64,000 nucleotides of DNA, from contig NZ_BDUD01000001.1 in assembly GCF_003113895.1 (NCBI RefSeq), positions 2,331,118 through 2,395,117 of the forward strand. The letters are read 5' to 3'. The DNA is from Nostoc commune NIES-4072. Its GTDB lineage: Bacteria > Cyanobacteriota > Cyanobacteriia > Cyanobacteriales > Nostocaceae. Positions 1,965 to 51,930 of the stretch are shown one piece after another; within the stretch, counting starts at the first letter, position 1; each line of letters opens with the position of its first letter. Made by a program: the position numbers and the translations under genes. The notes under the pieces are model-generated. The model saw only the letters and a list, made by a program, of their open reading frames with translations, did no database searches and was not told the origin of the DNA.

Positions 1965-1983
1965 TAAGCGCCGATTCATTGAG

Positions 1984-2050
1984 GAGCCGGATGAGGTGAA
2001 AGTCTCACGTCCGGTTTTGAAGACCAACGGGGTTGGTGACAACCTCGTTG
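1984..2050 (+). ncRNA. Group II intron domains V and VI
   Basis: Bases 1984-2017 form the conserved catalytic hairpin: the GAGCCGG arm pairs with CCGGTTT, and the inner arm GAGGTGAAAGTCTC carries the GAAA tetraloop. Bases 2025-2050 form a second hairpin (CAACGGGGTTG with CAACCTCGTTG), which is domain VI with the branch-site region beside it. Together they fix the orientation and the 3' end of the intron. Confidence 0.85.
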
Positions 2051-2131
2051 AGTTTACTAGTGTCAATTCTGGGTTGATTTTAAAAGTGTTGTAAATGGCT
2101 ATGCGTCGCTGACTGTAAAAGTATCCTATTT

Positions 2132-26616: not shown

Positions 26617-27298
26617 TTAAATTTAAGTGCTAGCAAGCCAATTTTTAGAAATAACAGATTAACTGTTGAGGTATTTGATTTCGAGAGATTTGGTGATATC
26701 TCATGTCACCGTCATTTTTAAATCTAGATTTAGTATTTTCAGTTATTACTATCCAGATATTTATTAATTTTCTTGTTAAGAATATTTAATTTTTTATGAT
26801 TAATTCATCTATCTTGCTAGTTAGGATTATTTGTTTATACAATACATTATCGAAGTTTGCTACTTTCAAAGAATATAAATATTCCAGAGAATTTTAGTAA
26901 AGGGATTACGGTTTGGGGAGGTTGTGATAAATACTCCATCGTTTTTGGTTAACTACTTAGCCCCCAATCTTCAGTTACCCAAAGCTATTTCATTCTCACC
27001 TAGCCCAACTCAGAATGAATTCTGAGTCTAATAGCGAAAGTCGTCTTTAGACGACTGAAAAAAGGTTATAGCCCGTTTGAACGGACTTTAGCTATAAGAG
27101 AGGTTTAGTTCTGGGCGGTTTATGTCTAGAACGAAATAGCCCTATTAGTCCGCAGTCGCGGTTTTTACATCTGGACAATCAGAATTTTTGGGTTAATGGT
27201 CAAGTTAACATTTGCAGATATAGATTGCAGATAAATCATAATCGCTGAATTAAATAATTGTAAAGATTGTAGGATAACGATTTTTTAGTAAATGAGAA
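26617..27298. other. Divergent intergenic region between kdpA and the histidine kinase
   Basis: AT-rich DNA that should hold both promoters. I could not select sites with confidence. It contains a complete multi-hairpin element (26984-27140). Confidence 0.6.
26984..27140 (+). repeat. Multi-hairpin structured element, copy at 27 kb
   Basis: The outer stem is GCTATTTC.TTCT (26984-26996) with AGAA.GAAATAGC (27128-27140). Within it GCCC (27003) can pair with GGGC (27113). Arm A is ACTCAGAAT/ATTCTGAGT (27008-27027, loop GA). Stem B is ATAGCgAAAGTC (27031-27042) with GACTTTaGCTAT (27084-27095) and encloses two hairpins: AGTCGTCT/AGACGACT (27039-27056) and CCGTT/AACGG (27073-27084). The layout matches 51411-51537. 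Confidence 0.75.
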
Positions 27299-48870: not shown

Positions 48871-48951
48871 TGGTATTTTGTTGAGGCAAAAATATTTCTC
48901 AGGAATTATAATCTAGATTTTGATATTACTCAGGTTTTGAAGTCCAAGTTT

Positions 48952-49203
48952 GAGCCTCAGAAGGTCAAAGTTGAGCCTCAGAAGGTCAACGTCGAGCCTC
49001 AGAAGGTCAACGTCGAGCCTCAGAAGGTCAACGTCGAGCCTCAGAAGGTCAAAGTTGAGCCTCAGAAGGTCAAAGTTGAGCCTCAGAAGGTCAAAGTTGA
49101 GCCTCAGAAGGTCAAAGTTGAGCCTCAGAAGGTCAACGTCGAGCCTCAGAAGGTCAAAGTTGAGCCTCAGAAGGTCAAAGTTGAACCTTAGAAGGTCAAA
49201 TTT
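48952..49203. repeat. 21-bp minisatellite, 12 units
   Basis: Twelve units start every 21 bp from 48952 (GAGCCTCAGAAGGTCAAAGT and variants). Two unit types alternate in blocks: one with AAAGTT and one with AACGTC at the unit end. Both strands are open through the array (heptads EPQKVKV on plus, LLRLNFD on minus), a consequence of 21 being a multiple of 3. I treat it as non-coding; it lies between the start regions of two divergent genes. Confidence 0.92.
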
Positions 49204-49258
49204 CAAGCAACCTTAGTTGTAGTATAGTTTTGCTTTTGTATTATTAATGGTATAAGAG

Positions 49259-50660: not shown

Positions 50661-50879
50661 ATGATCAGCAAAATCAAAGCTCTAACAACTGACAAAGAAA
50701 AAAACCTGCAAGCTCCAGTCGAAATGGAGGAACTATCAGACGGAGAAGCTATAAACGTAGTAGGGGGTCGTTCGGATTATTTCTATTACGGAAGCATCGG
50801 AAAGTTTAGATTTCCTATTTTCCTAGTTCGTACGGGGGGAGGGAGCTTAAGCTTACTACGTGAGGGGAGTAATAAATAG
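50661..50879 (+). CDS. Double-glycine leader peptide (RiPP/bacteriocin-like precursor)
   Basis: A 72-aa peptide with a charged N-terminus and the leader motif MEELSDGEAINVVGG (22-36), which fits the ELSxxE...GG site cut by C39 peptidase/ABC exporters. The predicted core is 36 residues (RSDYFYYGSIGKFRFPIFLV, then a Gly/Ser-rich basic tail) without cysteine, so it is not a lanthipeptide; a toxin, pheromone or signal peptide is possible. CGGAG lies 7 nt before the ATG, a strong ribosome site. No exporter, modification or immunity gene is nearby, so it would rely on a distant PCAT. A hairpin with a T-run follows at 51064. Confidence 0.7.
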   Translation: MISKIKALTTDKEKNLQAPVEMEELSDGEAINVVGGRSDYFYYGSIGKFRFPIFLVRTGGGSLSLLREGSNK

Positions 50880-51323: not shown

Positions 51324-51372
51324 TATTTGCTCATAGTTCTCGTTTACGTGAGGTACACCCGTAGGGGTACGA

Positions 51373-51598
51373 CACTGCCCATTGGTGTCAACTTAACGTA
51401 AGAATCATGTCCCGCAAGGAACTGAAGTTCCTTGCTAATAGCGAAAGTCATCTGAAGATGACTAAAATATACTCAACAATCTTTAGTCTACTTGAGTAGA
51501 CTTTAGCTATTAGCCTTGAACTTTAGTTCGAGGCGGGTGAGTCAGCCAAGCCAACAGTTAAGCTATTTCTAGGCTTTTGTTGACACGTATGGGCAGTG
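51373..51598 (+). repeat. Multi-hairpin structured element with terminal inverted repeats
   Basis: The ends are CACTGCCCATTGGTGTCAAC (51373-51392) and GTTGACACGTATGGGCAGTG (51579-51598), inverse repeats matching at 18 of 20 positions. Inside, 51411-51537 is almost fully paired: closing CCCGC/GCGGG; arm A 51415-51434 (9 bp, loop GA); stem B 51435-51449 with 51499-51513 (14 pairs, one mismatch) enclosing hairpins AGTCATCT/AGATGACT (51446-51463) and AGTCTACT/AGTAGACT (51485-51502); and arm C 51514-51533 (9 bp). There is no coding frame. See the copies at 26984 and 5344. Confidence 0.8.
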
Positions 51599-51930
51599 CC
51601 GCCCCGACGCGAAATATATATATATGTATTAGGGTTTTACTTTCTCTCTCTATACAAAATATAAATTGGAAACATAATTAATCCTTCCCTCGTCTTTCGG
51701 CTAGATTAACAATTTCTGTTGTTGTCAACTCACACCACAAATAAAACTATCAGCGATTTACTTTAAATAAGTAATGATGATTTATCGTGCTTATCTAATC
51801 CCAAATATTATCCCCAAAAATAACTCAACGGGATTTATAACTTTTTCTCCGGAAGTTCAGCACAATCATCAGAAAAAAATCTAAGTAAAGCTGATTAGTC
51901 GCTCCTAACTTGCACACCCACAATCACAAC

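What the first reader, a model, noticed from the sequence alone, without database searches (positions are those of the whole stretch)
51373..51598. Nearly fully base-paired multi-arm element with terminal inverted repeats
Bases 51411-51537 fold on paper into a closed junction: arm A (9 bp), a 14-pair stem B carrying two 8-bp hairpins with 2-nt loops, and arm C (9 bp), closed by CCCGC/GCGGG. Inverse repeats of 20 bp (18 matched) flank it at 51373 and 51579. This looks like either a MITE that carries a conserved structure or a structured RNA that has become mobile. I know of no named family with this layout.
Basis: seen in the sequence. Interest (0 to 1): 0.72.

Follow-up and report, generated by a model that had tools for sequence, protein, structure and literature searches.

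The report
Nested mobile hairpin element in cyanobacteria
This is a small non-coding jumping element of a Nostoc-like cyanobacterium that sits at the centre of a DNA palindrome and carries a four-hairpin core which several other kinds of small jumping element in cyanobacteria also carry.

Summary
Window 51380-51591 is a 212-bp MITE. Its left 17-bp end is identical to, and its right end a diverged copy of, the ends of an intact IS4-family insertion sequence in a related genome (L407). Over 83 TIR-TIR elements in held loci, flank identity peaks only at 9 bp (0.72, against 0.16-0.35 at other lengths). 46 of 83 lie inside a palindrome, against 0 of 64 control flanks. One relative has the palindrome empty near the same right flank.

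The multi-arm core (51411-51537) is a separate repeat family. Its four hairpins covary: 145 of 1055 cells changed on both sides, at most 20 when partners are slid. The closing stem and stem B hardly covary. Cores lie between at least six kinds of end. No Rfam family matches.

'MITE carrying a conserved structure' is supported; 'structured RNA that became mobile' has no positive support. How the core spreads is unsolved: no empty host, no RAYT partner.

The parts
51380..51591 (+). MITE (212 bp), non-autonomous IS4-family element
   Evidence: TIR pair and 9-bp duplication; no ORF of 60 aa or more overlaps it; 53 of 61 core-bearing relatives in held loci are 201-223 bp, the other 8 are 243-447 bp
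51380..51396 (+). left terminal inverted repeat CATTGGTGTCAACTTAA
   Evidence: identical to the ends of IS copies L407 (intact) and L123 (broken)
51575..51591 (-). right terminal inverted repeat, diverged (TTTTGTTGACACGTATG)
51371..51379 (+). left 9-bp target-site duplication GACACTGCC
   Evidence: 9-bp signal over 83 elements
51592..51600 (+). right 9-bp target-site duplication GGCAGTGCC (7 of 9 matched to the left one)
51361..51370 (+). left arm of the target palindrome (GTAGGGGTAC)
   Evidence: uninterrupted palindromes (up to 3 mismatches) in 38 of 59 genomes, own included, reversed control 0
51601..51609 (+). right arm of the target palindrome, eroded (GCCCCGACG)
51411..51537 (.). core: inverted pair of two-hairpin half-units (four hairpins)
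   Evidence: covariance model R1, 135.1 bits on + and 132.7 on - (this copy is one of the 24 in the model); covariation
51414..51435 (.). arm A hairpin
   Evidence: helix 2: 8 of 10 pairs with double changes, 92.1% of cells paired
51446..51463 (.). inner hairpin B1
   Evidence: helix 4, 97.4% of cells paired; 224 of 237 inner hairpins with the constant frame are perfect in the variable triplet
51485..51502 (.). inner hairpin B2
   Evidence: helix 5, 97.6% of cells paired
51513..51534 (.). arm C hairpin
   Evidence: helix 6: 6 of 9 pairs with double changes, 96.3% of cells paired
51436..51442 (.). stem B, 5' side (TAATAGC); pairs with 51506-51512
   Evidence: conserved, one pair of seven with a double change (helix 3)
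51506..51512 (.). stem B, 3' side (GCTATTA)
   Evidence: as above
27004..27119 (.). second core in the window, between ends of the GGGCTATTTCATTCT kind
   Evidence: 78 bits; L201
5308..5395 (.). weak, degenerate third core match
   Evidence: 21 bits, E 0.0019

Best explanation
The element is a type I MITE: a short passenger whose ends are recognised in trans by an IS4-family DDE transposase. It was inserted, with a 9-bp duplication, at the centre of a dispersed palindrome (GTAGGGGCAC..GTGCCCCTAC). Shown from sequence: ends shared with an intact IS, the 9-bp duplication over many copies, a palindromic target in over half of the copies examined, the bare palindrome near the same right flank in a relative, many copies. 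Inferred: cut-and-paste movement in trans, now stalled in this genome because no intact transposase of the kind was found. Its cargo, the four-hairpin core, is a palindromic unit that also lies between at least five other kinds of end. Inferred and less certain: the core acts and is kept at the DNA level, each hairpin being renewed as a perfect palindrome either by selection for extruded hairpins or by template-switch correction during replication, and it spreads mainly as cargo of whatever MITE holds it.
For: Ends: intact IS at L407 (1413 bp, same 17-bp ends, perfect 9-bp duplication AATTAAGGG, 439-aa transposase; NF033592 IS4 194.4 bits against a cut-off of 115, DDE_Tnp_1 58.8 against 23). 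Duplication: 83 unique TIR-TIR elements in held loci, mean flank identity 0.72 at 9 bp and 0.16-0.35 at the other lengths from 2 to 14, 28 exact at 9 bp. Target: 46 of 83 in a palindrome, against 2.0% of shuffled flanks and 0 of 64 flanks 300 nt away; the left 9-mer is itself self-complementary in 26 of 83 against 0.8% shuffled. Bare palindrome near the same right flank in G019 (L270); right ends of the same kind in that place in G011, G016, G030, G071 and G008. Copies: 55 BLAST matches, many partial, in the own genome; 43 of 59 genomes, own included; TIR pattern (up to 1 mismatch) in 53 of 53 genus genomes, up to 192 per genome with a reversed control of at most 6 per strand. Core separate: 102 of 156 hand-listed cores have at least one of five end motifs within 110 bp, against 3 of 75 control flanks; a sixth kind of end surrounds cores in Fischerella/Pelatocladus records. 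DNA level: both strands score nearly alike; 224 of 237 inner hairpins are perfect against 14.5% expected for independent arms, while left and right hairpins agree in only 12 of 88 cores.
Against: The own genome has only one weak transposase match (E 1.9e-6), so present mobility is unsupported. 37 of 83 elements are not in a clear palindrome, and IS copies also lie outside palindromes by eye (L407; of the sister IS, L402 and L403). The focal duplication matches at only 7 of 9 bases and 55 of 83 are not exact. Only one intact IS with exactly these ends was found; four of the five places with exact IS duplications are of a sister IS with a one-base different end. Host MITEs without the core were not found: the pattern for one host gave 0 of 52 genomes, so capture or insertion of the core is not shown. 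Oriented copies lean towards G.U (14 against 7), not significantly. The covariance model mixes orientations, which helps its symmetry. Loci were fetched because they matched, so proportions are not unbiased.
Confidence: 0.85

Rival explanations
1. The core is a structured RNA (regulatory element or terminator-like RNA) that became mobile by capture in MITEs.
For: Strong folding and strong covariation of four hairpins; intergenic position; a non-significant lean to G.U in oriented copies.
Against: No Rfam match over threshold. Nearly symmetric: both strands fit the model about equally (with the caveat of a mixed-orientation model). G.U is not significantly more common than A.C. The stems that would hold the RNA junction together hardly covary. 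No expression data.
Confidence: 0.08
2. The core is itself a mobile palindrome (REPIN-like), moved in trans by a single-strand transposase of the Y1/RAYT kind, and it enters other MITEs by insertion at hairpin tips.
For: Defined unit of two inverted half-units: 66 of 85 half-units have the inverted partner within 160 nt downstream; 1 match 1000 nt further on, number examined there not printed. Found between several kinds of end. The own genome has 22 Y1_Tnp matches.
Against: No core in the 20 fetched Y1 loci (best E 0.45) and no half-core motif there. No GTAG tag at the foot of the hairpins. No empty host found for the one kind tested. No target duplication of its own seen.
Confidence: 0.2
3. 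The perfect hairpins reflect only template-switch correction of quasi-palindromes during replication; the core has no function and spreads purely as cargo.
For: Local palindromes are perfect and vary independently of each other; 2089 of 2298 paired cells are Watson-Crick; the target palindrome also shows matched changes in both arms between genomes, e.g. in G045.
Against: Linker sequences (CTAATAGC, AAGTC) are conserved beyond what pairing asks for, which suggests recognition by something.
Confidence: 0.35

Closest known systems
IS4-family insertion sequences and their MITEs
   Same: Ends, 9-bp duplication and transposase family of the partner IS
   Different: Frequent but not absolute insertion at centres of dispersed palindromes; cargo core shared with elements of other ends
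ISRm22 (IS4 family), inserted in REP elements of Sinorhizobium meliloti (PMC1525189, passages read)
   Same: IS4-family element whose target is a repeated palindrome; insertion at a symmetry axis is described there for ISPsy8
   Different: Other organism, other palindrome; no MITE nor nested core described in the passages read
REP/REPIN and GTAG-tagged palindromes, including cyanobacterial GTAG-12/-15/-16 (PMC3733652, passages read)
   Same: Dispersed palindromes, inverted pairs, some nested in longer palindromes; the target palindrome here begins with GTAG
   Different: The core has no GTAG tag and no RAYT partner was found in the own genome; the consensus sequences of GTAG-12/-15/-16 were not seen, so identity with the target palindrome is untested
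MITEs of Anabaena sp. 90 with three sets of inverted repeats A, B, C (PMC3542288, passages read)
   Same: Small multi-hairpin MITEs in a Nostocales genome
   Different: Sequence not compared (supplement not available); reported there as type II, without an IS partner
Nezha MITE of Anabaena/Nostoc (Zhou 2008; paper not held; seen only as a mention and citation)
   Same: Cyanobacterial MITE; recalled to form stem-loops and to have an autonomous partner
   Different: Could not be compared

Membership tests
Type I MITE of an IS4-family insertion sequence | Terminal inverted repeats shared with a full-length IS | tested here: met
   Left end identical to both ends of L407 (intact) and of the broken or shortened copies L123, L406, L410; right end diverged
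Type I MITE of an IS4-family insertion sequence | Target duplication of the same length as the IS | tested here: met
   9-bp signal over 83 elements, 28 exact; exact 9 bp at L407 and at four places of a sister IS; focal copy 7 of 9
Type I MITE of an IS4-family insertion sequence | Short and non-coding, many copies | tested here: met
   212 bp, no ORF of 60 aa or more overlaps it; copies
Type I MITE of an IS4-family insertion sequence | Partner transposase belongs to IS4 | tested here: met
   NF033592 194.4 bits over cut-off 115, PF01609 58.8 over 23
Type I MITE of an IS4-family insertion sequence | Movement in trans by that transposase | not testable with these tools
   Needs a transposition assay
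REP/REPIN moved by a RAYT (for the core) | GTAG (or CGTC) tag at the foot of the hairpin | tested here: not met
   Alignment A2, by eye: CCGCC and CTAATAGC at the feet, no tag
REP/REPIN moved by a RAYT (for the core) | RAYT gene flanked by the repeat | tested here: inconclusive
   0 of 20 fetched Y1 loci of the own genome carry a core or half-core; 2 of the 22 matches were not fetched; other genomes not tested
REP/REPIN moved by a RAYT (for the core) | Inverted pair of units | tested here: met
   66 of 85 half-units
Known structured RNA family | Match to an Rfam model | tested here: not met
   the only match up to E 1 is CRISPR-DR46 at 25.2 bits against a cut-off of 50
Nezha MITE | Sequence and ends as published | not tested
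   Paper not held
Small dispersed repeats of Nostoc punctiforme | Sequence as published | not tested
   Paper not held

The most novel reading that the evidence does not exclude
The core is an independent mobile palindrome of cyanobacteria that homes to the tips of other palindromic elements, producing stacked hairpins: palindrome, then IS4-type MITE at its tip, then core within the MITE. One enzyme or replication process that acts on extruded hairpins would then explain its presence between unrelated ends.
Probability: 0.2. Interest if true: 0.72.

Novelty: new variant of a known kind. Interest (0 to 1): 0.5.

Why it matters
It gives a concrete IS-MITE pair with a measurable preference for the centres of palindromes; the one cyanobacterial MITE study whose passages I read (PMC3542288) found no IS partner for its MITEs. 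More unusual is one four-hairpin cargo shared by elements with at least six different ends. It makes testable whether small palindromes spread as hitchhikers, by their own movement, or by hairpin-directed insertion, and why their arms stay perfect while their sequence drifts.

Tried and rejected
Structured RNA: Rfam at gathering threshold and at E up to 1 gave nothing over threshold at the element; the G.U test gave no significant asymmetry. Rod-shaped fold: favoured by energy minimisation, not borne out by covariation. RAYT/Y1 as mover of the core: no core or half-core in 20 fetched Y1 loci of the own genome. Empty host for the GGGCTATTTC kind: 0 of 52 genomes, exact ends only. Empty site for a core outside the IS4-type MITE (L158 locus): the search showed that this core lies in a further repeat of about 176 bp; of the regions fetched, L273-L278 and L292 were not analysed. 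Of the 13 regions fetched for the focal place (L259-L271), ten were printed; L263, L268 and L269 were only compared by BLAST. A first palindrome test with shuffled pairs of flanks was weak because flanks share a consensus (25 of 83 against 14.5%) and was replaced. A first energy comparison was invalid because of two-base loops and was replaced. Literature: searches for cyanobacterial MITEs, REPs, Nezha, small dispersed repeats, IS4 and REP targets, and mcy-inactivating MITEs (listings) and for literal stretches of the core and ends (0 papers) showed me no description of this core or these ends; of the papers listed, only passages of PMC3733652, PMC3542288, PMC1525189 and PMC10969869 were read.

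Full report
What is there. The window lies in contig 1 of an 8.2-Mb genome. The element lies in the gap between a 72-aa ORF and an AMIN/beta-lactamase-family gene, apart from overlapping short ORFs upstream of it.

The outer element. The ends are CATTGGTGTCAACTTAA at 51380-51396 and a diverged copy at 51575-51591. The pattern TTGGTGTCAACTTAA with up to one mismatch occurs in 53 of 53 genomes of the genus, up to 192 times per genome, with 0 to 6 reversed-pattern matches per strand. Among all held loci, 83 unique TIR-TIR elements of 100-450 bp were found, 61 with a core-like motif; their flanks agree at 9 bp (mean identity 0.72, 28 exact) and at no other length from 2 to 14 (0.16-0.35). Held loci were mostly fetched by similarity, so this is not a random sample.

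The partner. A query with a related transposase found matches in 47 of 52 genomes; the own genome has one weak match only. Of 32 loci scanned for ends (two of them the same place), L407 has an intact 1413-bp IS with identical ends, a perfect 9-bp duplication and a 439-aa transposase. Five distinct places have exact 9-bp duplications; the other four belong to a sister IS whose end reads CATTGGTGTCAAGTTAA. The L407 protein passes the IS4 model and DDE_Tnp_1. Other copies with these ends are broken: L123 has its frame in two parts, the match in L406 has a stop, and the copy on a Nostoc sp. UHCC 0926 plasmid has a short frame (276 aa; its left end seen).

The target. 46 of 83 elements have arms of at least 7 of 8 complementary bases outside the duplication, against 2.0% of shuffled flanks and 0 of 64 flanks 300 nt away; the left duplicated 9-mer is self-complementary in 26 of 83, against 0.8% shuffled. 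The uninterrupted palindrome TAGGGGCACRGCANTGCYGTGCCCCTA (up to 3 mismatches) occurs in 38 of 59 genomes, up to 175 per genome, 12 in the own genome, control 0. At the focal place, 13 relatives' regions were fetched and ten printed: G032 has a 94% copy of the MITE between the same outer flanks; G011, G016, G030, G071 and G008 have a right end of the same kind with the palindrome arm, their left ends not traced; G019 (L270) has the bare palindrome; G065, G002 and G003 show none of these; the three not printed (G029, G025, G024) share only flank matches. The nearest right flank includes sequence that may itself be repeated, so the match of place in G019 rests on the flank from 51666 on and on similar spacing.

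The core. Aligned over 24 copies, 94.1% of cells pair in the multi-arm form; 145 of 1055 cells are changed on both sides against 9 to 20 when partners are slid; covariation score 0.374 against 0.035-0.077. The alternative rod gives 0.085 and 75.3% paired. The support lies in four separate hairpins: the closing stem has no double change, stem B one pair. Half-units come mostly as inverted pairs: 66 of 85. The model finds 107 strand-wise matches, about 55 places, in the own genome and matches in 22 of 98 genomes of the phylum: 2 of 2 of the genus, 13 of 13 of the rest of the family, 6 of 17 of the rest of the order, 1 of 8 of the rest of the class, 0 of 58 beyond (stricter filters). A pattern scan of named genomes for a half-core stopped at its limit with 108 stretches; of the 80 listed, 78 are cyanobacterial records (Nostoc, Fischerella, Symploca, Planktothrix, Microcoleus, Calothrix and others) and 2 are contigs of one Chloroflexi MAG; of those two, L321 gives a full core by the model (67.7 bits).

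Many hosts. Of 156 hand-listed cores, 102 have at least one of five end motifs within 110 bp on at least one side (IS4-type 62, CAGATCTTGCACC 20, GGGCTATTTC 12, GTGTACACACAAGTC 5, CATTACCCACAT 4; one core counts twice), control flanks 3 of 75; both sides carry the motif in 37, 8, 8, 2 and 2. The other 54 carry none of the five. A sixth end, GGGAGCATCCCAA, surrounds cores in Fischerella/Pelatocladus records (5 elements). Some copies of the GGGCTATTTC and GTGTACACAC kinds show direct repeats of about 9-10 bp, and one CAGATCTTG-type copy shows TA at both edges (by eye), which suggests different transposases; none was identified.

DNA or RNA. In 97 unique cores, 2089 of 2298 cells with letters are Watson-Crick, 51 G.T, 62 A.C, 96 other. 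In 23 cores oriented by their MITE, G.T 14 and A.C 7, p 0.19. So RNA is neither supported nor excluded by this; the near symmetry of the core and the perfect but independent hairpins (224 of 237 with the constant frame are perfect; left equals right in 12 of 88) fit a DNA-level process better.

Mechanism. Shown: an IS4-type MITE with matching partner, duplication and preferred palindromic target. Inferred: movement in trans, selection of extruded hairpin tips as targets, present immobility in this genome for want of an intact transposase. Open: how the core came to lie between different ends. No RAYT link was found in the own genome and no empty host of the one kind tested.

Noticed in passing
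window 1981-2057: Group II intron domain V match (RF00029, 53.9 bits; RF04357, 62.4 bits).
   Followed up: no
window 48913-49206: Tandem repeats, heptapeptides in translation so about 21 bp, open in several frames.
   Followed up: no
window 50661-50879: 72-aa ORF with a VVGG motif that looks like a leader-peptide precursor (recalled resemblance); no Pfam match.
   Followed up: partly
L091 (Nostoc sp. C052 plasmid) 2076-2168; L023: Another MITE-like element (TAGGACTTACGCA...TGCGTAAGTCCTA, about 93 bp) inserted inside copies of this MITE.
   Followed up: partly
L125, L126, L131-L134: Further elements with the same IS4-type ends but different palindromic cargo.
   Followed up: partly
L321, L331 (Chloroflexi MAG Dive96_bin3.112): Half-core matches outside Cyanobacteria; L321 has a full core between CATTACCCACAT ends. 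Could be transfer or mis-binning.
   Followed up: no
L297 (Anabaena lutea) and L369 (Anabaena catenula): Same core with similar flanks in two species, which suggests a shared old insertion.
   Followed up: no
own genome, 22 places: Many Y1_Tnp (IS200-like) matches, four of them with the same score, none with the core beside it among the 20 loci fetched.
   Followed up: partly
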